64,000 nucleotides of DNA, from positions 1 to 64,000 of IMG/VR virus record IMGVR_UViG_3300034093_001036; one strand, 5' to 3'. The stretch is from a virus. Positions 2,691-64,000 of this stretch are shown piece after piece (the stretch's first letter is position 1; the number at the start of each line of letters is the position of its first letter). The position numbers and the translations under genes are program-made. Below the pieces are notes generated by a model. The model made no database searches, was not told the DNA's origin, and saw only the letters and a program-made list of their open reading frames with translations.

Positions 2691-4112
2691 CTATCTTATC
2701 ACTAAATTGTTATAAGTTTTTTGCCATTTTTCTATATCATTTTCATCATTTAGTAGTGGCTGTCCTTTAATATTAAGGCTTGTATTTAATAGTATTGGAA
2801 CACCAGTTTCAATATAAAACTTATTAAGAACTCTCCATAACCCACGATGTTGATCTTTATTTACAGTTTGAACTCTTGAGGTTCCATCAGCATGAACTAC
2901 AGATGGTATTTTATCTGGCTGAAGACACTTAACTGTATATTGCATATAAGGGCTTGCAAAATCCATATCAAACCACTTAGACGCACACTCTTCCATAACT
3001 ACTGGAGCAAATGGTCTAAACAACTCTCTTTGTTTAATTAAATTAACTTTATCTTTTATATTTGGATCTCTTGGGTCAGCAAGAATGCTTCGATTGCCCA
3101 ATGCTCTTGGACCGTATTCTGCTCTGCCTGTTGCTACTGCTACGATTCCATCTTTTAATATACCGTCCACAATTTGCTGAACAGGATACTCTCCTCCAAG
3201 ATCATAGCCAAGATACGGAGTCTTCCAGTCAAGGTGCTTTCCGTACAAGGCTGCTGCTGCACCTAAAGAACTACCAGCATCTCCTGGGTTAGGCATGATC
3301 CAAATCATATCAAAAATATTCCATAGCAATGTATTTGCTGAAGAGTTAAGGGCACAACCACCCATAAATACTAAGTTCTTTTTACCAGTAAGGGACTTTG
3401 CCATACGCATAAACTGATTTAATCTTTGCTCATACACTACTTGTACTGCTGCAGCAATATCAAACCTATCTTGCTCTGTAATTATCATTCCCCAGTCATT
3501 AATTCCTTTATGAAAATTATATTTTTGTTTATCGTATGAAGGAAAATATTCATCAACCTCTTTGTAGTAACGCTTCCAGTCACCATAGGCAGCCATTCCC
3601 ATCATAATGTATTCTTCTTGGTTTGGCATAAGTCCAATAAGTTGTGTAAAAGCAGAATAAAATAGTCCAAAACTAACTGGATAGTTTTGCTTATACTTAA
3701 GTTTAATCTTGTCGCCCTCACCAACCCAAATAGTTGAAGTGTTATATTCTCCTATTGCATCTAATACAACAATTACAGCATCGTTAAATGCGCTTGTGTA
3801 GTATCCTGCTGCTGCATGAGAGTAGTGATGCTTAAAGTAGTGTACTGGAACATCTAAAGGAATGTTTGGCTTCCAGTCTGCTGCGCCACCCTTTAACATT
3901 ATTCTAGATCTTTTAAGCCAAGGCTTCTCATAGTAAGCAATGTAGTCTGGTGTTCCATAGTTTAATGCATCTAAGATAATATCTTTGTTGTTATACCAAT
4001 CATTCTTTTGTTTACTATATCTTTCTGCATGTCCCGCAAAAAGTATTTCTCCATCTTTAATTAAAGATACAGATGCGTCGTGGGAAGTTTCGTTAATTCC
4101 TAAAATTATCAT
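2691..4112 (-). CDS. Carbamoyltransferase, NodU/CmcH/TobZ family
   Basis: These enzymes make carbamoyl-adenylate from carbamoyl phosphate and ATP and pass the carbamoyl group to a hydroxyl, usually on a sugar. The N-terminal Kae1-like half has the metal-binding HHYSH (residues 95-99), GGCALNSSAN (251-260) and GDAGSS (277-282). The YrdC-like half has GRAEYGPRALGNRS (329-342) and ends soon after ILLNTSLNIKGQP. At 473 residues it is shorter than the usual 540-600, with the shortfall at the C-terminus. Its start overlaps the stop of the upstream SGNH-like gene by four bases (ATGA), implying translational coupling. Possible acceptors are a glycan on the virion or host, or a modified base; the sequence does not decide. 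Confidence 0.9.
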   Translation of the reverse strand: MIILGINETSHDASVSLIKDGEILFAGHAERYSKQKNDWYNNKDIILDALNYGTPDYIAYYEKPWLKRSRIMLKGGAADWKPNIPLDVPVHYFKHHYSHAAAGYYTSAFNDAVIVVLDAIGEYNTSTIWVGEGDKIKLKYKQNYPVSFGLFYSAFTQLIGLMPNQEEYIMMGMAAYGDWKRYYKEVDEYFPSYDKQKYNFHKGINDWGMIITEQDRFDIAAAVQVVYEQRLNQFMRMAKSLTGKKNLVFMGGCALNSSANTLLWNIFDMIWIMPNPGDAGSSLGAAAALYGKHLDWKTPYLGYDLGGEYPVQQIVDGILKDGIVAVATGRAEYGPRALGNRSILADPRDPNIKDKVNLIKQRELFRPFAPVVMEECASKWFDMDFASPYMQYTVKCLQPDKIPSVVHADGTSRVQTVNKDQHRGLWRVLNKFYIETGVPILLNTSLNIKGQPLLNDENDIEKWQKTYNNLVIR

Positions 4113-50746: not shown

Positions 50747-52780
50747 CTACTTGTTTATTTTAATTTCGCAATAATCTGTTGTGCAATACATCTCTCCCTG
50801 AGCCTCAAGATTTTCTGCTCCATCATAAATTGCAGCAAAATCAATGTGCTTTAACTTGCCAATATATGACTCGTATTGCTCTTCAGTAATACCTGTGTAG
50901 GGTTGCTGTGGATAAACTGTATTTCCCATTGGAAGGAATGAGACAGCCTTTAATTGTCCTTCGTACATATTGAGTGCTGGAACAATATGCTTTGACTCTG
51001 TTTCCTTGTCAAATGAAAGTGTTACAGAAACGCCATTGTCAGACCAATACTTTTGAGCAGTTGCAGCAAGTGCAATCTTTTCAAATAGTGTTACATCTTT
51101 TTCAGATCTTGGATGACCTGATTTAATTGGGAAGTAAACTACTGATGTGTTTGCTGATACAACATCGTCTTCAACTGTATACCCTGCTGCTTTAAACAAA
51201 TGCATCATTGGATCTGTGTTTCCAAAACGAACGGCACGAAGGAAGAACTCTCCTCCAGGACCCCAGTGAACTCCAGGAGTTGCACCAGAAAGAATTGAAA
51301 CTGATCCTGATGGCTTAACTGTTGTTACACGAATTGATTCACGAACACATAACCATTCAGAGTACTGATGATCATAATGACGAATCTTGTTGTATCCTTC
51401 ATCCATCCACTCACGAACCGTTGGCAAACCCTTTTGATCTGCAAATGATGCAATACCAGTAAGTGATGTGCCAATACGACGGTTGCGTTGCATGATACCG
51501 TTTGTTTGTGGCCAATGTGTTGGAACAAGTGTTACAGTCTTTCCATAAAGGTATGCAAACTTCAGGGTACGCAGGAAGTCTTCCTTAGATTCATGACGAT
51601 TCAAGTGCACTTCTACAAGTGTACATAATTCGTATGACTCTAATGGCTGCTCCGCACAGGGATTAAAGCCCATCACACGATAGTCTTTTCCATCTGGCGC
51701 ATCCTTTAGTCTGCCATAGTTACGAGCAACATCAAGCCAGATAAAACCTGGCTCTCCATTTTCTGTAACTAAATCTACATAGTCTTCGTACTTTGTTCCT
51801 ACTTCTGCTGAAATAGAATTATTAGACATCCAAGCCCAACCTGGATTCTCTGGATCAAATGAGTTACGCTCTGGGAATAACTCTGAGTTCTTTAGATTCA
51901 TAAATGTTTCATCCCCTGCATTACCCAAAGCAAGGGTTGCTGATCTACGAACATTGCCTGATACCACACAGGTACCAATAAGATTTACAAGGTCTACGAT
52001 AGCACGAGAGTCTAGTGTTTCACCTGCTCTGGAGCCTATTACACGGTCTATATGGTCATGCAACTTGATAAGGGGTGCAGGACCTGATGCAACGCCTCCA
52101 AAGCCCTTAATAGGGGCTCCAAGAGGTCTTATCAAATCATAGTTAAATTTTTGAATGCTTTGGTTTGCTCTTAGATATGAGTTGATAAGAAGTCTAACTG
52201 ACTCTACCCATCCCTCACGAGTGTCTGGGATTTCGAACACCTGTTCTGGTTCTGTTGGGGCATAGATTGCAAAATGCTTATCCTGTCCCACTGTATCAAA
52301 CCCTACACCAATACCAAGCATAAGGGCATCCATAACCCAAGCAAACAGGGCTCCTGGATCATTCTTGTCAAGGTCCTTTGTAGAAACCATTGCACAATTC
52401 TGTAGTGCTGCCGAGTTCTTTTTTTCCATTACCATTGGAGTTCCAAAAGCCCACATACCTCGTCCTGGTGGTGTCCACTTTAATTCAAACATTCTTTGGA
52501 ATGCTTCTTGTGCAGACTTCTGAGCCTTATAATCATTCCATGGTAGACGGTTTTCTTTAGCATGATTCTTTTGAACTGAATACATACCCTCGATTACTCG
52601 ACGACAAACTTCGTGCCAACGCTCTTTAGTTCCATCCTCCTTCATACGAGAATAAGTACGGATAAATGTAATCTCTCCTAAAGAGTTTTCTGCTGCATCC
52701 TTAAAACCAAAAGGGCTTGGAGCAGAAACATATTTACCTATAAAATCTTCTGGAAGTCTAAAACTAAAAAAATCTGACAT
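50747..52780 (-). CDS. nrdJ: Ribonucleotide reductase, adenosylcobalamin-dependent class II
   Basis: The protein has 677 residues and converts ribonucleotides (probably NTPs) to deoxy forms using B12. Active-site residues align with the monomeric Lactobacillus-type enzyme: Cys129 (QNCAM), Asn373-Cys375-Glu377 in NPCAEQ and Cys386 11 residues later (disulfide partner spacing as known). C-terminal Cys666 and Cys671 in CTTDYC are the shuttle pair. The shorter length than bacterial homologues fits phage forms. GAAAGGA precedes the ATG. G+C is visibly higher than in the AT-rich cassette just upstream. The host must supply or import cobalamin. Confidence 0.95.
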   Translation of the reverse strand: MSDFFSFRLPEDFIGKYVSAPSPFGFKDAAENSLGEITFIRTYSRMKEDGTKERWHEVCRRVIEGMYSVQKNHAKENRLPWNDYKAQKSAQEAFQRMFELKWTPPGRGMWAFGTPMVMEKKNSAALQNCAMVSTKDLDKNDPGALFAWVMDALMLGIGVGFDTVGQDKHFAIYAPTEPEQVFEIPDTREGWVESVRLLINSYLRANQSIQKFNYDLIRPLGAPIKGFGGVASGPAPLIKLHDHIDRVIGSRAGETLDSRAIVDLVNLIGTCVVSGNVRRSATLALGNAGDETFMNLKNSELFPERNSFDPENPGWAWMSNNSISAEVGTKYEDYVDLVTENGEPGFIWLDVARNYGRLKDAPDGKDYRVMGFNPCAEQPLESYELCTLVEVHLNRHESKEDFLRTLKFAYLYGKTVTLVPTHWPQTNGIMQRNRRIGTSLTGIASFADQKGLPTVREWMDEGYNKIRHYDHQYSEWLCVRESIRVTTVKPSGSVSILSGATPGVHWGPGGEFFLRAVRFGNTDPMMHLFKAAGYTVEDDVVSANTSVVYFPIKSGHPRSEKDVTLFEKIALAATAQKYWSDNGVSVTLSFDKETESKHIVPALNMYEGQLKAVSFLPMGNTVYPQQPYTGITEEQYESYIGKLKHIDFAAIYDGAENLEAQGEMYCTTDYCEIKINK

Positions 52781-52883: not shown

Positions 52884-53654
52884 TTAAGACGTTAACTTTT
52901 TCCACTCTTCTTTTTGAATGGCTTGCTCAATTCTTACTTGTTTTTCTTCTTCTTTCCACTTATCAATAGTTTCTTGACTATATTCAATTTCAAAATAATC
53001 CCAAAAAGAAACCATAGTATATCTTGTGCCTTCTAATATTTTACTAACACCATGCACATTTTCTATTCCTCCAGGAAATACATAGTAAGAGTATGCATTT
53101 GGTTTAAAGGATAAATAGATGTCCCACTTTTCTCCTTCTGAATTTATTTCAAAGTCTTCTTTTTCTTTACAAAAGAAAAGATCTCCACCTTCATAGTCGT
53201 TATTAAGATATAGAATACCCACATACTTATTTATTTCAAAAGCGTTTGGGACCCCGTCATTATCTGAGTTGTCAGAATGAGGAGAAGCAAAACCGCCAAC
53301 ATCCCACTTCTGTGCATGAGATGTATTGGCTCTAACTTTTCTTTCAAAAACCAGTTCAACTGCTTCTTTAAACTTTTCTCTAAGGTCATCAAAAAATGTT
53401 AGCGTTAGACCATGTTCTTCAAGTCCTGGATCGTTTGCCATTAATCCCATACCTAGAGATCCATAAAACGCTATGTCTCCCCAGTTTTCTCCTTTTGACT
53501 CTACATAATTAATTAGACATTGGCTTGTTTTTTCATCTATAAAATTAGGAATTTCAACAATTCTGTTGTGAGTTATACCTAAAACACCCTTATTATTTAA
53601 TTCATCTTTTAAATATTTAAAGTTATCTTTATTAAGTTGATTAATGATAGTCAT
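52884..53654 (-). CDS. 2OG-Fe(II) oxygenase, prolyl 4-hydroxylase-like
   Basis: The protein has 256 residues. The double-stranded beta-helix contains SPHSDNSD (HxD iron ligands), LYLNNDYEGGDLFF, NVHGV (distal His) and TRYTMVSFWDYF (Arg for 2-oxoglutarate). The family hydroxylates Pro, Lys or other groups on proteins or small molecules using O2 and 2-oxoglutarate. It is the last of the oxygenase run and overlaps its upstream neighbour by 14 bases. A charged helical tail (KWKEEEKQVRIEQAIQ) extends the usual domain and may mediate partner binding. The substrate is unknown. Confidence 0.88.
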   Translation of the reverse strand: MTIINQLNKDNFKYLKDELNNKGVLGITHNRIVEIPNFIDEKTSQCLINYVESKGENWGDIAFYGSLGMGLMANDPGLEEHGLTLTFFDDLREKFKEAVELVFERKVRANTSHAQKWDVGGFASPHSDNSDNDGVPNAFEINKYVGILYLNNDYEGGDLFFCKEKEDFEINSEGEKWDIYLSFKPNAYSYYVFPGGIENVHGVSKILEGTRYTMVSFWDYFEIEYSQETIDKWKEEEKQVRIEQAIQKEEWKKLTS

Positions 53655-54453
53655 TTTTTATGTAAACCCCGCTGCTTCTTTCAATGTTCATTCTGTCTTT
53701 TTCCATTTGCATCCATGTATCTGGTCCATATTTTTTTTGATTCTCAATCCAAGCATCTGATGCTTGTTCATCTACATACCAAAAAGATCTAACAAAATAC
53801 TTTTCTCCTTCAGTAGTTTCTCTTACTCCATGCCAGTACGGTGGCCTTGACGGAAAGATAATTACATCTCCTTCTTCTGGCTTATAAGTAATTCTTGTAA
53901 AAGAATCTTTATTGGAAAATACTTTAAATTCAATTTCTCCGCCATTATAGTTACTATTTAAATACATATTGCAAGTCAGGGCTTGTTTTTCTCCTGGACC
54001 CTCTGCATCTTCTTGTGGATAGTCTGTATGAAAAGACATAGAATATCTTGAATTGTTGTTTTCAATATGTGGAGAGTCACTTTCAGCCTTTGTAGAATCT
54101 TTTGAATTATAGTATTTGCATATGTCAGCCTTTAAAAATACTAAGTCCTCTAAGGATAGACCCGTTGTATCAACATAATGCTTTGTTGTTTTATAAAAAA
54201 CATCAAGTATATCCTTGTGTTGATCTGATACAAGAAAAGATTCTATGTATAAAGACCATTCTTGATCTGAAGGAAAAGATTTAGATCGATAAAAATTGTT
54301 ATTGAAAATTTTATAAATATCCCCAAAGTCATACCACTTTTCCCAAGTTGCGGAATCTAGAGAATCCAGAAGGCCACGCAAATCTTTAAATGGGTTCTTA
54401 TATACAAAAATGTTTTGGTCTATTTTATTAAAATTAATATTTTTAATTGTCAC
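53641..54453 (-). CDS. 2OG-Fe(II) oxygenase, prolyl 4-hydroxylase-like
   Basis: The protein has 270 residues. SFHTDYPQ (HxD), CNMYLNSNYNGGEIEF, PEEGDVIIFPS, YWHGVRE (distal His) and KYFVRSFWYV (Arg) are all intact. It is a close paralogue of the protein at 54450-55286: the two share FH(S)DY, AL-TCxMYLN, GDVxxFPS and the end EEWxxMEKxRI. An N-terminal phrase NIFVYKNPF also recurs in the paralogue. It overlaps both neighbours (4 and 14 bases). The substrate is unknown; a protein or glycan on the virion or host is likely. Confidence 0.88.
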   Translation of the reverse strand: MTIKNINFNKIDQNIFVYKNPFKDLRGLLDSLDSATWEKWYDFGDIYKIFNNNFYRSKSFPSDQEWSLYIESFLVSDQHKDILDVFYKTTKHYVDTTGLSLEDLVFLKADICKYYNSKDSTKAESDSPHIENNNSRYSMSFHTDYPQEDAEGPGEKQALTCNMYLNSNYNGGEIEFKVFSNKDSFTRITYKPEEGDVIIFPSRPPYWHGVRETTEGEKYFVRSFWYVDEQASDAWIENQKKYGPDTWMQMEKDRMNIERSSGVYIKNDYH

Positions 54454-55286
54454 ATTGCTACCTTAGATTCATCTATACCCTTTTTAATATTTGGCTTTTT
54501 GAAATCGTGATACCTGTCACCTCTATCAATTCTTTCTTTTTCCATCTTTGCCCATTCTTCAACACCAAATTTTTCTTGATTATCGTGCCACTCTTTTGTT
54601 CCAGCAAATGGAATTTGATAAAAGCATCTAATAAGATATTTGTCAATATTTCTAATTCTTTTAACACCGTGAAGGTATCTTCCCTCTTGAGATAATAAAT
54701 CTGGATGGCCTGAAGGAAAAACCAAAACATCTCCAGCCTCTGGTTTATAATCTATAACCGTTTTATTCCCAGTTAAAAATGTTATACCTCCATCGCCATA
54801 GTCATCATTCAAATACATTGTGCATGTTAATGCAAATTGTGCTCCTGGGCAATCTGTTTCAAGGGCTTTATAGTCTGAGTGATGGATCATTTCTAAAGAA
54901 TCTTTATCGCTATTTGGATCATTGTCATGAGTATATTTTGAAATTGATGGGCCCATAATAATCCAGTCCTCTCCTATTTTAAGATTATGGGCAGACATAA
55001 AATTTTCGGTTGCATAACCAAATGCATGCTGTATTGTTTCTAATGCCTCAACCTCTTCTAAATATAGTGTGTTATTAATATTAGGATCATCTTCATTTAG
55101 AAAATTACCAATGACATATACATAGTGTCCAAACCTACTCCATGGTTGCCAATCGTCAAATAAAAAACTAGTTCCTTTGTTTAATTCAGACTGCTTAAAT
55201 AATTCTACAATCCTTTTATTGTTTGGAATTAACCCTTTGTAAACATAAATGTTTTCATCTAATTGTTTAACTGTAATATTATTCAT
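54450..55286 (-). CDS. 2OG-Fe(II) oxygenase, prolyl 4-hydroxylase-like
   Basis: The protein has 278 residues. IHHSDYKAL (HxD), CTMYLNDDYGDGGITF, PEAGDVLVFPSGHP, YLHGVKRI (distal His) and KYLIRCFYQI (Arg) give a complete active site. It starts from its own extended -10 (55325-55333), with GGGGGA before the ATG, and is followed by two coupled oxygenase genes. The N-terminal motif NIYVYKGLIPNNKRI recurs in several cassette members (IFVYRDVLP, INVYKNAIN), suggesting a shared docking element. Confidence 0.88.
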   Translation of the reverse strand: MNNITVKQLDENIYVYKGLIPNNKRIVELFKQSELNKGTSFLFDDWQPWSRFGHYVYVIGNFLNEDDPNINNTLYLEEVEALETIQHAFGYATENFMSAHNLKIGEDWIIMGPSISKYTHDNDPNSDKDSLEMIHHSDYKALETDCPGAQFALTCTMYLNDDYGDGGITFLTGNKTVIDYKPEAGDVLVFPSGHPDLLSQEGRYLHGVKRIRNIDKYLIRCFYQIPFAGTKEWHDNQEKFGVEEWAKMEKERIDRGDRYHDFKKPNIKKGIDESKVAM

Positions 55287-55324
55287 TTTTTGTCCCCCAT
55301 TGGATTATCTTTAAACATATAATT

Positions 55325-55333
55325 ATTATACCA
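55325..55333 (-). promoter_or_regulatory. Extended -10 TGGTATAAT inside the oxygenase cassette
   Basis: TGGTATAAT overlaps the stop of the JmjC-like gene. The predicted start near 55318 gives a 32-base leader ending in GGGGGACAAAAA before the ATG at 55286. It would serve the last three oxygenase genes. Confidence 0.5.
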
Positions 55334-55880
55334 CCTTGTCTCCAAATAAAATTGCAAAACCAAATCTAGGGGTTATGGGTTCAACATAGTGGTAAGTTCC
55401 ACCAGGTATATACAATAGATCTCCTTCTTCTAATATAACATCCATAAAAGGTTGATCATTTTCAACAGAATCATAAAGTCTCCAACGTGTTTTACCTTTA
55501 CATTGCCAATGTATATTGTTTTCCCTGTCTTCATGTTTGCCAATAACTTGTCCGCTATCTTCAAGTTTAAGTGAACCAAATAACTGACATGTTACAACCT
55601 TTAAATCTTTAAAACAAGGATAAAATCTAGAATGAACTTCTTTTACAAATAAATTTACTGAACTTATAATCTGTGCCTCATCATAAAATAATGCGTATGG
55701 ATTAGGCAAAATCTTTTTACCAGTTTTTTTGTGCTCATAATCATTTACAAACTGAAGCACTTCATCCCAGGTAACTTCAGGCATTGATATTTTTGGAAAA
55801 AGAGTTGCTACTTTATTATTATAAGCATTTAAAAAATTATCTTGATCTAAAAAATTAAAATCAAAACTTTTATTTTTCAT
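55326..55880 (-). CDS. JmjC/cupin-like 2OG oxygenase
   Basis: The protein has 184 residues. GKHEDRENNIHWQ with CKGKTRWRLYDS, EEGDLLYIPGGTYHYVEP and RFGFAILFG follow the cupin-4/JmjC layout used by bacterial ribosomal-protein hydroxylases (H..D, Q, G.K.W.LY, IP.G..H). It is much shorter than those enzymes and lacks the dimerisation and winged-helix parts. It overlaps the next gene upstream by four bases. Family members hydroxylate His or Arg on proteins; the target here is unknown. The fold is more certain than the reaction. Confidence 0.75.
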   Translation of the reverse strand: MKNKSFDFNFLDQDNFLNAYNNKVATLFPKISMPEVTWDEVLQFVNDYEHKKTGKKILPNPYALFYDEAQIISSVNLFVKEVHSRFYPCFKDLKVVTCQLFGSLKLEDSGQVIGKHEDRENNIHWQCKGKTRWRLYDSVENDQPFMDVILEEGDLLYIPGGTYHYVEPITPRFGFAILFGDKVV

Positions 55881-56551
55881 TTTGATTTTCCATGTGAACG
55901 AATTGTAAAGAAAAAAGGAATAACATATCTAATTCCTTTTTTAATTTCTCTTACTCCGTGAATATAATTTAAATCTCCAGGGAAGAAATATGCAGAACCC
56001 GCTTTTGGCTTAAACTCAATTCCTTGATTTGGGAAATATAACTCTCCACCTTCATAGTCATCATTAAGATAAAAAAGACCTGCAATATCATACCAAGGAA
56101 AATCATTTGGCTTTCCTACATTGTCTCCTTCGTGCAACTCTTTATCTGCATGTGGGTTTTGTAGTTGTCCTGGAAGCCATCTAACAATTGCTGTTGCTGT
56201 GGGCCAGGCGTCAATATTAAAAAAATCATTTACTTCTTCTGTAAGCCTGTCTTGAAGGCTTTTAATTACTGGGTTTATATTTTTATTATTTTGATCTAAT
56301 CTATCTCCAGTGCAGACTCTGTCATCCCAATATTTAGAATCATAAATAACAGTTCCTTCTTCGTTATAGTGAGTTTCAGTAATATCCCAAATTGTAATAT
56401 TTTTTGCTGATTCTGATAAAAAAGATAGTTCTTCGTCGGTCATAAAATTGTTTCGTGCTTGGATCATATCTGCACTTTTACCAAAAAATCCAGAGGGAGT
56501 TATTGAAAATCTATCTTTATCTTGGTGATTAGAGTACTCTATTTTTTTCAT
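55877..56551 (-). CDS. 2OG-Fe(II) oxygenase, prolyl 4-hydroxylase-like
   Basis: The protein has 224 residues. NPHADKELHEG (HxD), FYLNDDYEGGELYFP, PKAGSAYFFPGD, YIHGVREI (distal His) and IRYVIPFFFT (Arg) are intact. RNNFMTDEELSFL resembles the N-terminal entry of P4H-like domains. It is transcribed from an extended -10 whose predicted start is the A of its ATG (56558-56566). It overlaps the JmjC-like gene by four bases. Confidence 0.88.
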   Translation of the reverse strand: MKKIEYSNHQDKDRFSITPSGFFGKSADMIQARNNFMTDEELSFLSESAKNITIWDITETHYNEEGTVIYDSKYWDDRVCTGDRLDQNNKNINPVIKSLQDRLTEEVNDFFNIDAWPTATAIVRWLPGQLQNPHADKELHEGDNVGKPNDFPWYDIAGLFYLNDDYEGGELYFPNQGIEFKPKAGSAYFFPGDLNYIHGVREIKKGIRYVIPFFFTIRSHGKSK

Positions 56552-56557
56552 ACAGTT

Positions 56558-56566
56558 AGTATATCA
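56558..56566 (-). promoter_or_regulatory. Extended -10 TGATATACT giving a leaderless start
   Basis: TGATATACT ends exactly six bases before the ATG at 56551, so the predicted +1 is the A of ATG. It lies in the 20-base gap between two cassette genes. Confidence 0.55.
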
Positions 56567-56571
56567 TCTTT

Positions 56572-57306
56572 CTATTCATATTTGCGCTGCTCCCAGATTT
56601 CATTTTTATATATTCCGCCATTTGGTTTTCTATAAATTTGATAATTTTCTATTGATTGCTTCATTAGTTCAACTGCATTATCTTGTTCTATTATTTCAGA
56701 AGTCCAGGATTCTCTTTTAAATGGCAGAAGTTGAGCATACGCTGTTCCTTCTGGAATAATTCCCTCAAAACCCTCACAAATAAAAAATGGAAAAGATCCA
56801 GGCATATGAACTTTGTCGTTATCCACAATTCCACTAGTTAGCAAAAATGGTAACTCAAATCTGTTAAATGGCTGAGTATACAATACGCTATATCCTGGAG
56901 GAGTTTTTATTTGCCAATCTGGAGTTATTGCAAAATGATTTTTGTAATACCCGCGGGGGTGTTCAAACTGTGGCATTTCTGATCTTTCTTCAATTAAGTT
57001 TTTATATTTTACATTTAAAACTTTATGTTTTAGTCCAGAATCAGTCATGTAGAATTCAATATCGCAAGGAAGATTAAGAGAATATCCAGAACCCATAATA
57101 TCAAAAATTGCAGGACAGGCCTTCCATGTAGGAACTTTTCCACCATCCTCTCCTATATAAAAAGAATTGTCTGTTGGTAATTTTGCAAACCTATCTGCTT
57201 TTCTAAACCATTCAGGAATTGTTCTTATAATTGGAGTTGGTGCTGACTTGCTTTCTTTTGAAAGCCAAATTTTATTTGCAATAAAAGATATTTTTTCTGT
57301 ATTCAT
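56572..57306 (-). CDS. DUF6065-like protein (first copy in gene order right-to-left: second)
   Basis: The 244-residue protein has IPEWFRKADRFAK (about 29-41), CPAIFDIMGSGYSLNLPCDIEF, TPPGYSVLYTQPFNRFELPF and IIPEGTAYAQLLPFKRESW. The last motif and the general order match the neighbour at 57306-58016 (PLPYAWKITRANEVITIPAG, in parts, and IPAGTPIVCIMPI), so the pair are paralogues of a beta-sandwich family with no known activity. They lie between two groups of oxygenases and overlap each other by one base. Pairing suggests a heteromer that works with the oxygenases. Confidence 0.6.
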   Translation of the reverse strand: MNTEKISFIANKIWLSKESKSAPTPIIRTIPEWFRKADRFAKLPTDNSFYIGEDGGKVPTWKACPAIFDIMGSGYSLNLPCDIEFYMTDSGLKHKVLNVKYKNLIEERSEMPQFEHPRGYYKNHFAITPDWQIKTPPGYSVLYTQPFNRFELPFLLTSGIVDNDKVHMPGSFPFFICEGFEGIIPEGTAYAQLLPFKRESWTSEIIEQDNAVELMKQSIENYQIYRKPNGGIYKNEIWEQRKYE

Positions 57307-58016
57307 TACTTGTCACTTTGATATTTATTAATTGAAAGTTTTAAGGATTTTACTTCGTGCTCTCCAAGGCTATTTCCTAAATGGTCAACAGCATCTCTAT
57401 AAAAGTTTGTCCATTGTCCAGACTGAGTTATTTCTCCAGAGGCTTTTCCATATTCAGAAAGATTCTTTTCAAAATCTTGATCTTTTACATAGTCGTACAG
57501 ATTTACTTCTGTTGCTTGGAGTTTTTTTAAACTAATTGGCATAATACAAACAATTGGTGTTCCTGCTGGTATTGTTATTACTTCATTTGCCCTTGTTATT
57601 TTCCATGCATATGGAAGTGGAGCAAGATGGACAACTGGACTAATTACACTTGAGAATCCTTGAACACCATCAATAAATTGATTTGGAACTGGAAGGAGCA
57701 GTAGACTAATCTCATCAGTACTTTTAAAATATAAACCACTATTAAAACTTATAGTTCCGTTAGCCCTGTTTGCATGAACATACTTTTCTCCAGAAAGAAT
57801 TTCAAGGTCTTCAGATCTAGAGTTTGGATCTGTTCCTTTCCAAATAAAAGAAATGTCTTCTGGAAAAGAAAATGTCCATCCTGTTGTGTTTGCCAACGAT
57901 ACTGGGAAGCAATGATAGGCGTGTTTGTCAAAAGTTTCATCCATCCAGTTTCTTCTAACTTTTAAAGTATCAAAAGTTACATCAGAATGTGGTGTTTGAT
58001 AAACATCTATAGACAT
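57306..58016 (-). CDS. DUF6065-like protein (paralogue of 56572-57306)
   Basis: The 236-residue protein contains RRNWMDETFDKHAYHCFPVS with LANTTGWTFSFPEDISFIW, the pattern I associate with DUF6065 (R.WMD.T..R.AYRCLPL.IAN..GW), plus VITIPAGTPIVCIMPI. Its reaction is unknown. The C-terminal helix region is charged (DVKDQDFEKNLSEYGKA). It starts with GGAAACTAAC before ATG and is one base from the upstream oxygenase gene. The family name is a recollection that needs a profile search. Confidence 0.6.
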   Translation of the reverse strand: MSIDVYQTPHSDVTFDTLKVRRNWMDETFDKHAYHCFPVSLANTTGWTFSFPEDISFIWKGTDPNSRSEDLEILSGEKYVHANRANGTISFNSGLYFKSTDEISLLLLPVPNQFIDGVQGFSSVISPVVHLAPLPYAWKITRANEVITIPAGTPIVCIMPISLKKLQATEVNLYDYVKDQDFEKNLSEYGKASGEITQSGQWTNFYRDAVDHLGNSLGEHEVKSLKLSINKYQSDK

Positions 58017-58017
58017 G

Positions 58018-58704
58018 TTAGTTTCCTGTTTCTAAAAACATCTCTGGTCCATGGAATTTTGCGCTGTAGTCTAGCATTGTTACAATTGAATATTTAGTTC
58101 CGCTAGTAACTGGCATTGCTCTATGAGAATACATATATGTTGATGGGAAAATATACAAATCTCCAGCACGTGGTTTTACTAATAAATCTTGGTGTTGAAA
58201 ATGTAAACCACCGTCGACGTAGTCGTCATTTGGGTATGCAACCAAAGACACTGTACAGTTATAAGAAAATCCATGATCATGATGATATTGGAAATGCTGA
58301 CCCTCATGGTATCTAATAAAATTCATTGCTTCCCAAAACCTTAGTTCTGCAATATTAAACATTTTACGATAGTGCTCAACTGCTGGACTTTTTCTATCGT
58401 AGCAGTCTTGCCAAAGTTGTTGAAGCGCTAAAGATGCTTCTCCTGGTCTTTGTGCCATATCTTTCTTTGTAAACTTAAAGTCAACACAATCTCTATATTC
58501 TGGCATGCTTTCTTGATAGCCAACAAACGCTTCCATCCAGTGAAATGGGTTGCTTTGGTCTTCAAGAACAGACTCTAATCTGTTAATAATATCCAGTTCT
58601 TTAGGTAAAACATCTCTATAGACAAAAATTCCACTCCCTAGATCTTCAAAAGACGACCAGGTTTGCTCTATAGGGGTTGTCTCAGTTTGAACATGTTTTT
58701 GCAT
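58018..58704 (-). CDS. 2OG-Fe(II) oxygenase, prolyl 4-hydroxylase-like
   Basis: The protein has 228 residues. QYHHDHGFSYNCTVS supplies HxD; AYPNDDYVDGGLHF, PRAGDLYIFPSTYMYSH (distal His) and GTKYSIVTMLDY (the Arg is replaced by Lys at the 2OG site) follow. It is a paralogue of the 58740-59444 protein (HGDHGPFYACTIS; IKYSVVIMTDY), with the same Lys change, so these two form a distinct subgroup. It has its own extended -10 at 58731-58739. Confidence 0.85.
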   Translation of the reverse strand: MQKHVQTETTPIEQTWSSFEDLGSGIFVYRDVLPKELDIINRLESVLEDQSNPFHWMEAFVGYQESMPEYRDCVDFKFTKKDMAQRPGEASLALQQLWQDCYDRKSPAVEHYRKMFNIAELRFWEAMNFIRYHEGQHFQYHHDHGFSYNCTVSLVAYPNDDYVDGGLHFQHQDLLVKPRAGDLYIFPSTYMYSHRAMPVTSGTKYSIVTMLDYSAKFHGPEMFLETGN

Positions 58705-58730
58705 TTTTTCCTGCTTTCTACTATGTATAT

Positions 58731-58739
58731 ATTATAGCA
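58731..58739 (-). promoter_or_regulatory. Extended -10 TGCTATAAT
   Basis: TGCTATAAT follows the stop of the 58740-59444 gene. The predicted start near 58724 gives a 20-base leader containing GCAGGAAAAA before ATG 58704. Confidence 0.5.
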
Positions 58740-59444
58740 CTAGTTATTCTTATGATGTAAATCGTTATAGTCTGTCATAATTACAACAGAATACTTTATA
58801 CCCTGCAATAATTCACAAGAGGCATGCTCATAAACAAAATTTGATGGGAAAAGAACAATGTCTCCAGCCTGGGGCTTAATCTTTAATTCTTGTCTTGGAA
58901 ACTCTAATTCTCCACCAACATAGTCATCATTAAGATATAGTATTGCAGATATTGTACATGCATAGAATGGGCCATGGTCACCATGAAGTTTAAAATATTT
59001 CCCAGGTAGATACTTAACAAAATTAAAGGCTTCTTTGTATTTCATCTGAAGATGCCATAAAGACTCATAATCATTTAGGCAGACATCTAATGCGTCTTCT
59101 ACCTCTTTGTGTATGTCAAACATGTCTTGATTAAAAGATATCCCAGACTTTCCAAGCATATCTCTTTTATATTTTATATCAATGCAGTTCCTAACATAAT
59201 CTAAATTTTCTACATCATTAACCATTGCTGTAGACCAAGAAAGGTTACAGTCTGGATCGTTTGCTGAGTTTTCTAGTCTTTTAATTATACTATCACACTG
59301 GCTTCTATTTATGGCATTTTTATATACATTAATACCGTAGCCAATATTTAAAACCTCTATGTTATTTGACATTGATCTAGACTTTAGCCTACTGTCTGCT
59401 TTTTCTAATCTTGGTAAATCAAGCCACCCAAAGTTATTTGTCAT
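58740..59444 (-). CDS. 2OG-Fe(II) oxygenase, prolyl 4-hydroxylase-like
   Basis: The protein has 234 residues. KLHGDHGPFYACTIS (HxD), LYLNDDYVGGELEFP, PQAGDIVLFPSNFVYEH (distal His) and IKYSVVIMTDY give the active site, with Lys in the 2OG-anchor position as in its paralogue at 58018. An N-terminal motif INVYKNAINRSQCD matches the shared entry element of the cassette. It begins at the predicted +1 of TGCTATAAT (59451-59459) and may be read from a leaderless mRNA. Confidence 0.85.
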   Translation of the reverse strand: MTNNFGWLDLPRLEKADSRLKSRSMSNNIEVLNIGYGINVYKNAINRSQCDSIIKRLENSANDPDCNLSWSTAMVNDVENLDYVRNCIDIKYKRDMLGKSGISFNQDMFDIHKEVEDALDVCLNDYESLWHLQMKYKEAFNFVKYLPGKYFKLHGDHGPFYACTISAILYLNDDYVGGELEFPRQELKIKPQAGDIVLFPSNFVYEHASCELLQGIKYSVVIMTDYNDLHHKNN

Positions 59445-59450
59445 TCTAAT

Positions 59451-59459
59451 ATTATAGCA
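59451..59459 (-). promoter_or_regulatory. Extended -10 TGCTATAAT giving a leaderless start
   Basis: TGCTATAAT ends exactly six bases before the ATG at 59444 (predicted +1 is the A of ATG). It lies in the 44-base gap after the methyltransferase gene. Confidence 0.6.
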
Positions 59460-59488
59460 TATCTACATATTTATACAAAATATTAATT

Positions 59489-60166
59489 TTAAATTTGATA
59501 TATGTAAATTTCTGCAAAATCATAAATTGGATCTTTTTTAAGCAATTCTTTAAAAATATAATCATTTTCAAAATGAAAAACAAAAAAGGATTTAGATTTT
59601 GATAAAATTTCCCATTTATCTAATATTAATTTATTAAAAATTTCAGGCAGCAATGGGTAATAAAAATAATAAACACACTTTTCTTCTGAAAAATGATAAT
59701 CATTTATATCACTATTTATAAAATCAACTTCTTTATCTATTTCTATATTAATTGTTTTTAAATTATTTAAAGCAATATTGTTGAATTGATCGTCTATCTC
59801 TACACCTACATACTTCTTATACGGTGCATTTGAGATTAACTGATGTAAAATTGTTTTTCCCTTACCGCTACCTATATCTAAAAAGGTATACTCCTCAATT
59901 CCTTCAATATCTTTCATAAAATTATTCACCATGTCTAAAATTTTTAAAGGTGAGTTCTGTAAACCCATTGATCCTGGAAACCTATCATTATTATCAATAC
60001 TGCCTGGCACATATTCACCAGAACCATCTGAGGCTAAAGGAGTTGGATGCCAAGTGTCTACATTATATTTTTCATCAAAAAATTTGAATAATGAAGCGTC
60101 TTCTCTTCTAATTTTTTTTAATACATCTAAATTCTTTATTGTACTTTTGTCTACACCTTTATGCAT
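59489..60166 (-). CDS. Class I SAM-dependent methyltransferase
   Basis: The protein has 225 residues. TFLDIGSGKGKTIL (motif I, about 105-118), YVGVEIDDQF (acidic motif II), DFINSDINDYHF (motif III) and YYFYYPLLPE (position of motif IV) define a Rossmann-type methyltransferase. The target is not evident: motif IV is YYPLLP rather than the DPPY of DNA methylases, so a protein, glycan or small molecule is favoured. GGAG precedes the ATG, and the start overlaps the preceding gene by eight bases. Confidence 0.82.
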   Translation of the reverse strand: MHKGVDKSTIKNLDVLKKIRREDASLFKFFDEKYNVDTWHPTPLASDGSGEYVPGSIDNNDRFPGSMGLQNSPLKILDMVNNFMKDIEGIEEYTFLDIGSGKGKTILHQLISNAPYKKYVGVEIDDQFNNIALNNLKTINIEIDKEVDFINSDINDYHFSEEKCVYYFYYPLLPEIFNKLILDKWEILSKSKSFFVFHFENDYIFKELLKKDPIYDFAEIYIYQI

Positions 60167-60746
60167 TTTTTGCTCCTAAATATTTGTTTGGCATGATATC
60201 AATTATAGCATGGATTCTGTCATGGTCACTATCGTTTATTACTGAGTGTGGAATAATATTATTAATCTCATACCAATTTCCAACCTCAAGATACTTTTTT
60301 TCTTCAAATACTTCAAATATGACTTTTGGATTTGTTATTAGTGGAATATGTATTCTTCTACCGAGTTGTAGCATTACCCCGCCATCAACGTGAGATTTTA
60401 TTCCAGAGCGCTTATTCATTTGAATTATCTCACTCCTAATAACTTTGCCATCGTACAAGTTTTCTAAATATTCATAAATAGCATTAAGGCTTTCATTAGA
60501 TTGTTTATTTTTAAAATAATTTATATCATAAGATGTATTGCCTTGTCCAATTTCCCAATGATAAGACATAAACCTTAGTTGAAACATTTTTGTATCTTTG
60601 TGCGTTGCCAACTTGTCTTGACGAGAAGTATCCAGTAGCCACTCATTTTCAAAAGAGTTAACTTCTTGAATTATTGAAGATAGATCAACTGGTAAAGATC
60701 CATATTGATAGTTCCAAGAAGTATTCTTATCTGGTAGTTTTAACAT
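60159..60746 (-). CDS. Aspartyl/asparaginyl beta-hydroxylase-like 2OG oxygenase
   Basis: The protein has 195 residues. IKSHVDGG (HxD), RRIHIPLITN, EVGNWYEINNIIPHSV (distal His) and DRIHAIIDIM (Arg) follow the Asp/Asn hydroxylase layout, including the R.HIPL strand. This family hydroxylates Asp/Asn on EGF-like or other proteins, and in bacteria some act on peptides or lipids. It is distinct from the P4H-like group of the same cassette. It overlaps the sulfotransferase gene by 20 bases and the methyltransferase gene by eight. Confidence 0.82.
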   Translation of the reverse strand: MLKLPDKNTSWNYQYGSLPVDLSSIIQEVNSFENEWLLDTSRQDKLATHKDTKMFQLRFMSYHWEIGQGNTSYDINYFKNKQSNESLNAIYEYLENLYDGKVIRSEIIQMNKRSGIKSHVDGGVMLQLGRRIHIPLITNPKVIFEVFEEKKYLEVGNWYEINNIIPHSVINDSDHDRIHAIIDIMPNKYLGAKNA

Positions 60747-61413
60747 AATCGTAAATTTCCATATCTAAATTGTTTAATTCTTCAATTTTATTTTTCATTG
60801 AATCTGATATTTTAATAGTTTGAAAATTTTCATTAATAGCATTTTTATTTGAAAAACTATAAAACCCATATGCCTGATAACATAGATCATTTAACCTTGA
60901 TATAAAAGATGAATGATTGTCTAATGTATCTATTAGAGCCATTGAGTCTATAAGGTCTTTTACTTCTTTTATATCTACGCTACCTTCTTCAAGGCACCAA
61001 CTTTCATTGGCTCTTTGAATTCCGTGGTCTAAAGAATTATAAAAATCTTCGTTTAAACTTTTATTTAAACTTCTAGCCTGAAGGTTATGGTGTTTTGAAT
61101 TTTCCACCCATTTTTCAAGTTGAGCCTCTAAGTGAGCACCTTTAAAAGATGGATGTAAATAAATAAAGTTGCTTATAAATCTATCTAATGGATTTCTAAC
61201 CAAGCCTATATTTATTAAGTCGTCTCTATACTTTAATGCAGTCAGACCAAAGTGCCCTGAAATAAACCGTTTATCAACAAAGGTTTTTGGAAAAACCTCT
61301 CCGTGGTTTGTAGCAAAGTATGGAATCTTCCTAATCTTTAGATCATTAACAATATGAGTCTTTATATATATACCCGAACATCTTGGGATATGTATATGAT
61401 TTATTGAACTCAT
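60727..61413 (-). CDS. Sulfotransferase family protein
   Basis: The protein has 228 residues. The N-terminal HIPRCSGIYIKTHI (8-21) is the 5'-phosphosulfate loop (variant of HIPKTAGT), FISGHFG is the conserved segment after it, and IGLVRNPLDRFISNFIYLH (about 68-86) the 3'-phosphate site. It should transfer sulfate from PAPS to a hydroxyl. It starts at the stop of the Hint protein gene, so the two are transcribed together, with the Asp/Asn hydroxylase coupled behind. Its proximity to the fibre and Hint genes suggests a virion glycan or tyrosine as acceptor. Confidence 0.75.
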   Translation of the reverse strand: MSSINHIHIPRCSGIYIKTHIVNDLKIRKIPYFATNHGEVFPKTFVDKRFISGHFGLTALKYRDDLINIGLVRNPLDRFISNFIYLHPSFKGAHLEAQLEKWVENSKHHNLQARSLNKSLNEDFYNSLDHGIQRANESWCLEEGSVDIKEVKDLIDSMALIDTLDNHSSFISRLNDLCYQAYGFYSFSNKNAINENFQTIKISDSMKNKIEELNNLDMEIYDYVKTTR

Positions 61414-61414
61414 A

Positions 61415-62779
61415 CTACTGAGAATCTCTGATAGTTAAGCCTTGGAAGGCACCCTTCTTATTATGAGAGATTAGATCTCCTGCAATAAAGAGTGAATAAG
61501 GATTTACAGTGATGTCATAAACATCTGTTGTTTCATCAATATATTCAACAACTTCAACAAGGGTATCAACTGCTTGATTATTGATATCGGATACTAGGTA
61601 GTCTCCAACTTTAACGACGCCAGCCTGTACGAATGCATAGACTCCATCTCTCTTAACAAGCATCAAGTGCTCCATAGAGAATCGTTTTTCGTTGGTGCTA
61701 TTGAATGCTACTGTAGTTGCAACATCTCTAGCCTTGATTGCTCCGATAACTGTTTCAACAACTGATGATCCAGTTAGAGTATCAGATACCCATGTCTCAG
61801 CAAAATCAACAGATGAGTTATCTGGTAATTCATTGAAACTGTAGGATACTAGACTTTGTCCAATAGCCAGGTCTCTTGCTTTAACATATCCACTAGTTGT
61901 TCTTACAAGAACATCACCTTGTACGCAGAATACTGGTGGGAAGAACGGACAGAATACTGGTGGGAAGAACGGACAGAATACTGGTGGGAAGAACGGACAA
62001 AAACGTGGTGGGAAGAACGGACAGAATACTGGTGGGAAGAACGGTGGGAAGAATGGGAAGAACGGACAAAAACGTGGTGGGAAGAACGGTGGGAAGAACG
62101 GTGGGAAGAATGGGAAGAACGGTGGGAAGAATGGTGGGAAGAATGGGAAGAACGGTGGGAAAAATGGAGGGAAGAAAGGAGGTGTTGTTGTAACGTTGTT
62201 AGAACTATTACCGTATAGTCCATCTCCATTAGCATTTATAGCAAGAACCTGATAACTCTGTGATGTATCTCCAGTTTCTGCTACAGTTGTTGACAAAACA
62301 TTTCCTACAACATAAACTGGACCATCAGAAGACTTTACACGATATCCAGTAATTGCAGATCCGCCAGTTGCAGGTGCTGTCCAAGATACTGTATCTAAGT
62401 TAACGGCTGTAGTTGCTGTTGGAGCATTTGGAGCAGCAGGAACTGTTGTTGCCAATACTCCTGCTGATGCAGAAGATGCTGCTGATGTTCCCGCAGCATT
62501 AGTTCCTGTTACTGTAAATGTGTAAGAAGTATTTGATGCAAGACCATCAACGGTAATTGGAGAGGCAGAAGAACTTCCTGTAAACCCTCCTGGAGAAGAT
62601 GTTACTGTAAATGATGTTGCTGCTGGAGAATCTCCTGGTAATGAAAAACTAACACTTATGGCACCATTGTTAAACGCACGTGAAGTTCCTACGTTTGTGC
62701 CTACAACAGATATGGGTGGTTTTGGCTCTAATGAGTCATTCTGTTGTAAAGATTTAGATCCTAGTTCTTTTTTTGCCAT
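61415..62779 (-). CDS. FN3-repeat protein with Pro/Phe/Cys stalk and C-terminal Hint (intein-like) domain
   Basis: The protein has 454 residues: two fibronectin III-like domains (about 22-115 and 116-205), a 75-residue stretch of only Pro, Phe, Cys and few Arg/Val (about 207-284), then Cys285 and a Hint domain to Asn440. Hint blocks are clear: CVQGDVLVRTTSGYVKARDL (block A), SMEHLML with VVKVGDYLV (block B) and VYDITVNPYSLFIAGD with LISHN (blocks F/G). There is no endonuclease insert. After Asn440 come 14 residues beginning Lys441, not Cys, Ser or Thr, so ordinary splicing is unlikely and cleavage or transfer is expected. GGAGA precedes the ATG. It is a likely virion or secreted adhesin processed at the Hint border. 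Confidence 0.85.
   Translation of the reverse strand: MAKKELGSKSLQQNDSLEPKPPISVVGTNVGTSRAFNNGAISVSFSLPGDSPAATSFTVTSSPGGFTGSSSASPITVDGLASNTSYTFTVTGTNAAGTSAASSASAGVLATTVPAAPNAPTATTAVNLDTVSWTAPATGGSAITGYRVKSSDGPVYVVGNVLSTTVAETGDTSQSYQVLAINANGDGLYGNSSNNVTTTPPFFPPFFPPFFPFFPPFFPPFFPFFPPFFPPFFPPRFCPFFPFFPPFFPPVFCPFFPPRFCPFFPPVFCPFFPPVFCPFFPPVFCVQGDVLVRTTSGYVKARDLAIGQSLVSYSFNELPDNSSVDFAETWVSDTLTGSSVVETVIGAIKARDVATTVAFNSTNEKRFSMEHLMLVKRDGVYAFVQAGVVKVGDYLVSDINNQAVDTLVEVVEYIDETTDVYDITVNPYSLFIAGDLISHNKKGAFQGLTIRDSQ
61925..62185 (-). repeat. Short tandem repeats encoding the Pro/Phe/Cys stalk
   Basis: The plus strand shows ggtgggaagaacgg words repeated throughout. Near 61925-62030 the period is 24 bp (P-V-F-C-P-F-F-P), while other units have 9, 12 or 15 bp, so the protein reads PPVFCPFF, PPRFCPFF and plain FPPFF. 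Length should vary readily by slippage. Confidence 0.85.
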
Positions 62780-62809: not shown

Positions 62810-64000
62810 TTATGCTGTGAGATCTCCAACAACAACCCAAGAGTCTGTTGCTCTCTTCATTAATGTTGCTGATGACCACTGTGTACGAAGTTTTAATCCT
62901 GGAGTTGCATTAACTGTTACTCCTACTGCTCCAGCAATTGTTACTTGTCCCGCACCAGTTTGAAGGATATCAATTGATGATCCTATTGGAAAGGCTGTTG
63001 TTGCATTTGTTGGAATTGTAACTGTTACTCCAGTAGCAGAAGAAACTTCAATTAATGAATCTCTTTCATTAAGTGCTGCAAGTGTGTAGCCTGCTGTTTT
63101 TTGTATAATTGTTGTACGTGATGGAACGCCTTCTTTTGTTTGTGTTCCATCTGTGAATTGTACTCCGCCTGCTGGAACAGTTATTCCTACGCCAGTAAAT
63201 ATTGGGGAAGCAAGTGGTGCATATGTATTTGCTGCTGTTGATGAAGCAAGTTTTAGGTCTAAAGCAGTTTGTGTAGCAGTTGAAACTGGCTTGTTAGCGT
63301 CGGAAGTATTTTCTACGTTTCCAAGACCAACCATTGTTGCTGAAATACCTGAAACTGTTCCACTAAATGCTGGGGAACTAAGTGGTGCATACCCTGAAAT
63401 GCTTGCGCCTGTAGGAATTGTTACTTCTCCAGTAAATGTTGGTGAGGCTAGTGGTGCATACCCTGAAATGCTTGCGCCTGCAGGAATTGTTACTGATCCA
63501 GTAAATGTTGGTGCATGCAATGGTGCCTTATAACCAAGTACTGTGTGTGTAGCAGTTGAAACTGGCTTATCTGCATCTGCTGTATTATCAACAGATCCTA
63601 GGCCTACCATTGACTTTGTTACACCAGACACAGTTCCTGTGAATGTTGGTGAAGCAATTGGTGCCTTAGCAGCAAGGTCAGATGTTAAACCTGAAATCTT
63701 AGACTGTGCAATTGCGGCTGATGCGTTAACGTCTGCGTCTACAATTGTTCCATCAAGTATCAGCGATGAAGTTATTGCCCCAGTTGAAATAGAAACTTCG
63801 TTACCTGATACAGTTACTCCAGTTCCTGCTGTAATTGTTCCTGAACCTGAGAACTGGAATACATCAATGTTATCCGTTCCAACAACAAATGTTGCAGGGT
63901 CTGCAACTACCTGAATCCATCCTGTTCCAGCGTTTGTTCCATCTTGTACGAATATGTATGCGCCTGGAATCTCTGATGCTTCATCACAATATGTACAACG
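62810..64000 (-). CDS. Tail fibre repeat protein (5' end outside window)
   Basis: The frame is open to the right edge (396 codons present). The sequence is built of phage fibre repeats: SPTFTGxVTIPxGASISGYAPL (in parts) three times (about 63400-63530) and MVGLGxVxNTxDAxKPVSTAT twice (about 63260-63340 and 63540-63610). Such GLGNV...PVSTAT repeats form trimeric beta-helical fibre shafts. The C-terminus (GVTVNATPGLKLRTQWSS; RATDSWVVVGDL) is a beta-sandwich tip. An internal GTG at 63631 could mimic a start, but the same repeats continue upstream in frame. It is the first gene before the Hint protein gene. Confidence 0.85.
   Translation of the reverse strand, partial: RCTYCDEASEIPGAYIFVQDGTNAGTGWIQVVADPATFVVGTDNIDVFQFSGSGTITAGTGVTVSGNEVSISTGAITSSLILDGTIVDADVNASAAIAQSKISGLTSDLAAKAPIASPTFTGTVSGVTKSMVGLGSVDNTADADKPVSTATHTVLGYKAPLHAPTFTGSVTIPAGASISGYAPLASPTFTGEVTIPTGASISGYAPLSSPAFSGTVSGISATMVGLGNVENTSDANKPVSTATQTALDLKLASSTAANTYAPLASPIFTGVGITVPAGGVQFTDGTQTKEGVPSRTTIIQKTAGYTLAALNERDSLIEVSSATGVTVTIPTNATTAFPIGSSIDILQTGAGQVTIAGAVGVTVNATPGLKLRTQWSSATLMKRATDSWVVVGDLTA

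What the first reader, a model, noticed from the sequence alone, without database searches (positions are those of the whole stretch)
52884..61413. Cassette of eight 2OG/Fe(II) oxygenases with sulfotransferase, methyltransferase and two DUF6065-like proteins
Twelve consecutive genes include six P4H-like, one Asp/Asn hydroxylase-like and one JmjC-like oxygenase, all with HxD...H visible. Phages commonly have one or two such genes; eight adjacent and non-identical ones suggest ordered, multi-site modification of a target. They sit immediately after the fibre and Hint genes and are followed by structural genes, so virion surface proteins are the best candidates. It could also be a small-molecule or glycan pathway, where hydroxyl groups made by oxygenases serve as acceptors for sulfation, methylation and carbamoylation.
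Basis: partly seen in the sequence, partly recalled or inferred. Interest (0 to 1): 0.85.

Follow-up and report, generated by a model that had tools for sequence, protein, structure and literature searches.

The report
Phage cassette hydroxylating a proline-rich tail protein
Next to its tail-fibre gene, a phage carries eight oxygen-using modification enzymes that most likely hydroxylate a neighbouring protein made largely of proline and phenylalanine repeats; the repeat and the enzymes travel together across many distant phages, which gives the long-puzzling phage prolyl hydroxylases a testable target.

Summary
Twelve packed minus-strand genes (52884-61413) encode eight 2OG/Fe(II) oxygenases with intact active-site residues (six prolyl-4-hydroxylase-like, one Asp/Asn-hydroxylase-like, one JmjC-like), two DUF6065-type proteins, a sulfotransferase and a methyltransferase. 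The informative neighbour is the 'Hint' protein just upstream: it carries an 85-residue array, 87% Pro+Phe (PFFPPFFP...), ending directly at Hint Cys1. In distant viral contigs a core set (P4H-A, P4H-B, two DUF6065, P4H-C, usually P4H-F) recurs downstream of fn3 proteins with such arrays, with or without Hint: 37 of 38 distinct cassettes, the last truncated. Starting blind from PFFPPFFP, 66 of 89 array ORFs have a P4H within 3 kb downstream, 2 of 66 upstream. Among blindly chosen tail-fibre genes, P4H follows 4 of 5 with an array and 1 of 44 without. This phage's second array module ends in a PF11397 glycosyltransferase, the family of the Skp1 hydroxyproline GlcNAc-transferase. Best explanation: a dedicated pathway that hydroxylates, and sometimes further decorates, prolines of a fibre-associated array. 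Sulfotransferase, Asp-hydroxylase, methyltransferase and JmjC are lineage-specific extras. Chemistry and virion location are untested. The pairing appears undescribed in the papers searched.

The parts
62810..64000 (-). tail-fibre gene with ...ASPTFTGTV... repeats (continues to about G000 65527)
   Evidence: ORF and repeats; found upstream of the array protein in relatives
61415..62779 (-). proposed substrate: fn3 domains + Pro/Phe array + C-terminal Hint domain
   Evidence: PF00041 E 9.5e-10; PF14890 intein splicing E 2e-5, below cut-off
61928..62182 (-). 85-residue Pro/Phe array (36 Pro, 38 Phe, 5 Cys), aa 200-284
61418..61927 (-). Hint domain, Cys1 immediately after the array, SMEH block B, terminal HN followed by K
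60727..61413 (-). sulfotransferase (PF03567); lineage-specific extra
   Evidence: strong matches only in the window's clade
60159..60746 (-). Asp/Asn/Pro-hydroxylase-like 2OG oxygenase (PF05118), H119-D121, H167; lineage-specific extra
   Evidence: weak match to L-proline cis-4-hydroxylase 4p7w
59489..60166 (-). class-I (DOT1-like) methyltransferase; lineage-specific extra
   Evidence: sub-cut-off Pfam hits; distribution
58740..59444 (-). P4H-A, core; H154/D156/H207/K217
   Evidence: PF13640 E 2e-11; invariant in 15 of 15; nearest solved structures are P4Hs 3itq/5hv0, from memory Bacillus anthracis
58018..58704 (-). P4H-B, core; H141/D143/H194/K204
57306..58016 (-). DUF6065-a, core; predicted dUTPase-like fold
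   Evidence: PF19541 E 3e-28; AlphaFold2 pLDDT 87, best Z 10.7 to dUTPase
56572..57306 (-). DUF6065-b (PHROG 7084), core; predicted dUTPase-like fold
   Evidence: pLDDT 91, best Z 10.4 to dUTPase
55877..56551 (-). P4H-C, core; H134/D136/H198/R208
55326..55880 (-). JmjC_2/cupin oxygenase, H116-D118, H164; lineage-specific extra
   Evidence: PF08007 E 1e-9; distribution
54450..55286 (-). P4H-D, variable slot
53641..54453 (-). P4H-E, variable slot
52884..53654 (-). P4H-F, core in most long cassettes; H126/D128/H201/R211
50747..52780 (-). class II ribonucleotide reductase, downstream boundary; probably not part of the pathway
   Evidence: PF17975, PF21995; absent after the cassette in several relatives

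Best explanation
The cassette is a dedicated protein-maturation pathway. Its prolyl-4-hydroxylases act one after another, or at different sites, on the Pro/Phe array of the fn3-array(-Hint) protein encoded just upstream, a putative fibre-tip or adhesin protein made together with the tail fibre. Each P4H has its own conserved specificity. The two DUF6065 proteins (dUTPase-like fold) are constant partners, perhaps carriers or scaffolds. In this lineage the Asp/Pro-hydroxylase-like and JmjC enzymes add further hydroxyls, and the sulfotransferase and methyltransferase cap hydroxyls; in the phage's second module a hydroxyproline-GlcNAc-transferase-like enzyme does so. Where Hint is present, its Cys1 follows the array and could release the array or attach it covalently through a thioester. 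Shown by computation: gene content, intact catalytic residues, purifying selection on six genes, and non-random co-occurrence of array and P4Hs. Inferred: the substrate identity, the order of steps, virion location, and the roles of DUF6065, Hint and the capping enzymes.
For: Forward test: 36 of 38 distinct cassettes with at least 2 kb upstream have a Pro/aromatic array ORF upstream. Of the two misses, L024 does carry one and L014 starts inside the Hint gene. Background is 71 of 1292 ORFs, which includes the cassette-linked ones. Reverse test from PFFPPFFP, without using oxygenases: 66 of 89 have P4H within 3 kb downstream, 2 of 66 within 3 kb upstream. Control with blindly chosen SPTFTGT fibres: P4H after 4 of 5 with an array, 1 of 44 without, Fisher p = 1e-4. 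Arrays of other build (PASTA domains, C-termini -PPxFK) also have P4H neighbours in part, and on three bacterial-bin contigs with arrays the DUF6065 sits beside P4Hs. P4H-A, -B, -C and -F form position-specific clades over 16 distant contigs with invariant active sites; dN/dS is 0.04-0.15 for the six genes with enough substitutions. The second array module ends P4H - 2OG-like - PF11397 glycosyltransferase, and P4H and/or an array adjoin that glycosyltransferase in L371, L373, L374, L377 and L379. In Dictyostelium, prolyl hydroxylation of Skp1 is followed by GlcNAc addition (PMC9108976). P4H-A's only solved relatives are prolyl 4-hydroxylases.
Against: No biochemical or proteomic data. About a quarter of PFFPPFFP ORFs lack a nearby P4H; some are fragments or chance bacterial hits, but some are clearly other phages whose fibre arrays have none (L125, L127, L158). 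DUF6065 relatives occur without P4H in haloviruses and in cyanophage S-RIM4 and apparently in proteobacterial chromosomes, so that family has other uses. No cultured phage with a PFF array was found.
Confidence: 0.7

Rival explanations
1. The oxygenases modify the tail-fibre protein itself (for example its SPTFTG repeats) or other virion proteins; the array is only a neighbour in a variable tail region.
For: The cassette lies in the tail-fibre region in the relatives.
Against: SPTFTGT fibres without an array almost never have P4H nearby (1 of 44). Arrays of different architecture keep the link in part.
Confidence: 0.12
2. The cassette is a small-molecule, nucleotide or glycan tailoring pathway: oxygenases create hydroxyls that are then sulfated or methylated. 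DUF6065 proteins with dUTPase-like folds and the adjacent RNR point to nucleotides.
For: DUF6065 models resemble dUTPase; DUF6065-b relatives sit near RNR or thymidylate synthase in haloviruses and S-RIM4; sulfotransferase and methyltransferase are present.
Against: RNR is absent after the cassette in several relatives while the core persists. P4H-A is closest to protein prolyl hydroxylases. The array association is unexplained by this model.
Confidence: 0.08
3. The enzymes act on host proteins or adjust host 2-oxoglutarate and nitrogen metabolism, as has been proposed for cyanophage 2OG oxygenases.
For: Proposed in the literature for cyanophages without experiment (PMC9602691).
Against: Position-specific orthologues next to one structural gene type, in a packed cluster in the tail module, do not fit a general metabolic role.
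Confidence: 0.07

Closest known systems
Collagen-type prolyl 4-hydroxylase with collagen-like repeats (chlorella virus PBCV-1; Bacillus anthracis P4H)
   Same: PF13640-type P4H acting on proline-rich repeats; a cyanophage-like virus (L256) has a P4H directly downstream of a GPPGPPGPEG protein
   Different: Here the repeats are Pro/Phe without Gly-X-Y, and several distinct P4Hs (usually four or more) sit with one array
Dictyostelium Skp1 PhyA-GntA pathway (prolyl hydroxylation then GlcNAc on hydroxyproline)
   Same: P4H plus PF11397 glycosyltransferase in the second array module of this phage and relatives
   Different: The substrate is a repetitive phage protein, not Skp1; PF11397 is absent from the main cassette
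Cyanophage S-SCSM1 with 24 2OG oxygenases (PMC9602691)
   Same: Clusters of divergent 2OG oxygenases beside tail-fibre genes; its short tail fibre 245 has a proline-bearing RQPRNFRQPR repeat
   Different: No PFF array in that record; function attributed there to host metabolism
Hint/intein and bacterial-intein-like domains
   Same: Cys1, SxxH block B and terminal HN in the window's domain
   Different: No Cys/Ser/Thr after the Asn; the N-terminal flank is the array

Membership tests
Prolyl 4-hydroxylase (PF13640 2OG-Fe(II) oxygenase) | HxD...H metal triad and Lys/Arg for 2OG | tested here: met
   All six; invariant in orthologues except one gapped row
Prolyl 4-hydroxylase (PF13640 2OG-Fe(II) oxygenase) | Family score above curated cut-off | tested here: met
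   28.6-47 bits against cut-off 27
Prolyl 4-hydroxylase (PF13640 2OG-Fe(II) oxygenase) | Hydroxylates peptidyl proline | not testable with these tools
   Needs biochemistry; adjacency to Pro arrays is indirect support
Collagen/P4H system | Substrate with Gly-X-Y triplet repeats | tested here: not met
   Window array holds P, F, C, V and R only, no Gly
Skp1-type hydroxyproline glycosylation | P4H paired with a PF11397 GlcNAc-transferase | tested here: met
   Second module of this phage and relatives; not in the main cassette
Skp1-type hydroxyproline glycosylation | Skp1 as substrate | tested here: not met
   The neighbour is a Pro/Phe array protein
RiPP biosynthetic cluster | Short precursor peptide with leader next to the tailoring enzymes | tested here: inconclusive
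   The upstream partner is mostly a 250-460 aa fn3 protein; ORFs under 50-60 aa were not searched
dUTPase (for DUF6065) | dUTPase fold | tested here: met
   Predicted models only, best Z 10.7 and 10.4; a shared fold, not a function
dUTPase (for DUF6065) | Sequence-family match and catalytic motifs | tested here: inconclusive
   No Pfam dUTPase hit; DUF6065-b keeps an invariant GxxDxD like motif III, with Lys where the motif has Tyr (motif from memory)
Hint/intein | Cys1, SxxH block B and terminal HN | tested here: met
   PF14890 below curated cut-off
Hint/intein | Cys/Ser/Thr after the Asn, needed for splicing | tested here: not met
   HN is followed by K, often HNK-stop in relatives

The most novel reading that the evidence does not exclude
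Phages build a multiply modified Pro/Phe polymer at the fibre tip with an assembly line of several P4Hs plus capping enzymes, and the Hint domain then couples the finished array covalently to a target or releases it: a phage-made hydroxyproline adhesive with no close counterpart.
Probability: 0.25. Interest if true: 0.92.

Novelty: new variant of a known kind. Interest (0 to 1): 0.78.

Why it matters
Prolyl hydroxylases and 2OG oxygenases are common in aquatic phages, yet papers state that their use is cryptic or uninvestigated (PMC9301287, PMC9602691). A repeated pairing of P4H cassettes with a defined proline array in a fibre-linked protein gives a concrete substrate, a peptide to assay and a modification to look for in virions. 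It would extend peptidyl-hydroxyproline chemistry to phage tails and suggest a role for the DUF6065 family there.

Tried and rejected
Close DNA relatives in named phage genomes: none. DUF6065-a in named phages: none. PASTA-type array protein in named phages: none, though BLAST masks low complexity. PFF arrays in ten named records (eight cyanophage-type, two haloviruses): none. DUF6065 as a hidden 2OG oxygenase: not supported, models match dUTPase. Cellular DUF6065 neighbourhoods as a clue: ten proteobacterial regions showed no P4H hit, but ORF picking in GC-rich DNA was poor, so this is uninformative. Cassette size against number of prolines: Spearman 0.38, p = 0.03, n = 33, not corrected for relatedness, so not used. 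PF11397 presence in array records against control records (7 of 38 against 3 of 38) is a small difference on its own; only its local arrangement is used. Promoter-like sites are no more frequent than in shuffles. The 2OG-like gene at L008:7432-7992 has no Pfam or PDB match; its assignment rests on an HVD...H pattern only. Solved relatives of the sulfotransferase: none; of the JmjC protein: weak cupin matches only. Literature searches for phage prolyl hydroxylase with tail or virion terms gave nothing on this pairing.
Full report
Observation. Eight are 2OG/Fe(II) oxygenases by Pfam: six PF13640, one PF05118, one PF08007, each with HxD and a distal His. The other four are a DUF6065 protein, its PHROG 7084 relative, a PF03567 sulfotransferase and a class-I methyltransferase with weak hits. 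The six P4Hs are 25-36% identical to each other. A class II ribonucleotide reductase follows. The record is an 88.6 kb virus fragment; its major capsid protein is about 41% identical to those of large Streptomyces phages, so an actinobacterial host is likely but not shown.

The neighbour that matters. The Hint gene upstream encodes fn3 domains, then an 85-residue array with 36 Pro and 38 Phe, then a Hint domain whose Cys1 directly follows the array. In distant viral contigs the same slot holds an fn3 protein with a similar array, usually without Hint. The core of the cassette, P4H-A, P4H-B, DUF6065-a, DUF6065-b, P4H-C and usually P4H-F, persists across contigs down to about 45% protein identity, with local rearrangements. 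The sulfotransferase, Asp/Pro-hydroxylase-like, methyltransferase and JmjC genes occur together with it only in the window's own clade. Weak sulfotransferase hits in L043 and L044 suggest separate gains.

Tests of association. Forward: 36 of 38 distinct cassettes have an array ORF upstream; L024 also has one and L014 is truncated inside the Hint gene. Reverse: scanning viral contigs for DNA encoding PFFPPFFP, plus 14 bacterial-genome hits to a longer form, gave 89 array ORFs with at least 1.5 kb downstream; 66 have a P4H within 3 kb downstream, against 2 of 66 within 3 kb upstream. Control: tail-fibre genes picked by an unrelated repeat (SPTFTGT) have P4H downstream in 4 of 5 cases with an array and 1 of 44 without. 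Some array-bearing phages (L125, L127, L158) have no P4H nearby.

Selection and paralogy. A tree of 105 P4Hs from the window and 16 distant contigs gives separate clades for positions A, B, C and F (SH-aLRT 96-100), so the copies are old and keep their own place. Catalytic residues are invariant apart from one gapped row, and dN/dS between the window and L014 is 0.04-0.15 in the six genes with enough substitutions. The five genes downstream of DUF6065-b are nearly identical between the two (too few changes to test), which suggests recombination inside the cassette.

DUF6065. AlphaFold2 models built from 48 and 44 homologues (pLDDT 87 and 91) match dUTPases at best Z 10.7 and 10.4. DUF6065-b keeps an invariant GxxDxD stretch resembling dUTPase motif III (motif from memory). 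No Pfam dUTPase match exists. Relatives in haloviruses and S-RIM4 sit near nucleotide-metabolism genes. A role in the cassette is therefore inferred only from constancy.

Second module. About 8 kb upstream lies another fibre, PT-repeat/array/Hint protein (Hint 87% identical), then a P4H, a 2OG-like protein and a PF11397 glycosyltransferase. In relatives this glycosyltransferase adjoins P4H and/or an array in L371, L373, L374, L377 and L379, though not in L372, L375, L376 or L378. PF11397 is, from memory, the family of the Dictyostelium Skp1 hydroxyproline GlcNAc-transferase; that pathway hydroxylates Skp1 Pro143 and then adds GlcNAc (PMC9108976).

Mechanism proposed. P4Hs hydroxylate array prolines, each at preferred positions; optional enzymes add hydroxyls or cap them; Hint, where present, activates the array's C-terminus. 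Substrate identity is supported by association only. The literature says how viruses use P4H is cryptic (PMC9301287) and that cyanophage 2OG oxygenases have not been specifically investigated (PMC9602691). The papers searched were open-access only, so earlier description elsewhere cannot be excluded.

Verdict. A real and widespread module: known chemistry (peptidyl proline hydroxylation), new substrate class and enzyme multiplicity. Membership in the P4H family is met by sequence; membership in the collagen system and among splicing inteins is not met.

Noticed in passing
L253:10931-12196 (S-SCSM1, MK867354.2): The short tail fibre next to four 2OG oxygenases carries a repetitive RQPRNFRQPR/FRAPVPFR insert; a cultured phage in which the same idea could be tested.
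   Followed up: partly
L256:4461-6660 (Marine virus AG-345-F15): A collagen-like GPPGPPGPEG protein lies directly upstream of a P4H-like gene.
   Followed up: partly
window 61418-61927 and relatives: Hint domains after the array often end HNK-stop (L016, L053, L155, L203 and others) while some lack the terminal HN; this suggests N-terminal cleavage or transfer without splicing.
   Followed up: partly
L014:1-11018 against window 52884-61413: Identity jumps from about 88% (DUF6065-b) to 99-100% (P4H-C to P4H-F), and two opposite-strand ORFs follow a shortened methyltransferase match: recombination or insertion inside the cassette.
   Followed up: partly
L054 and 17 other ORFs in array loci: A short-chain dehydrogenase (PF00106) is a recurrent extra in array/P4H cassettes; GSHPx, DUF6171 and further sulfotransferase-like genes also recur.
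   Followed up: partly
window 2691-4112: Nol-like carbamoyltransferase (PHROG 1601) about 49 kb from the cassette.
   Followed up: no
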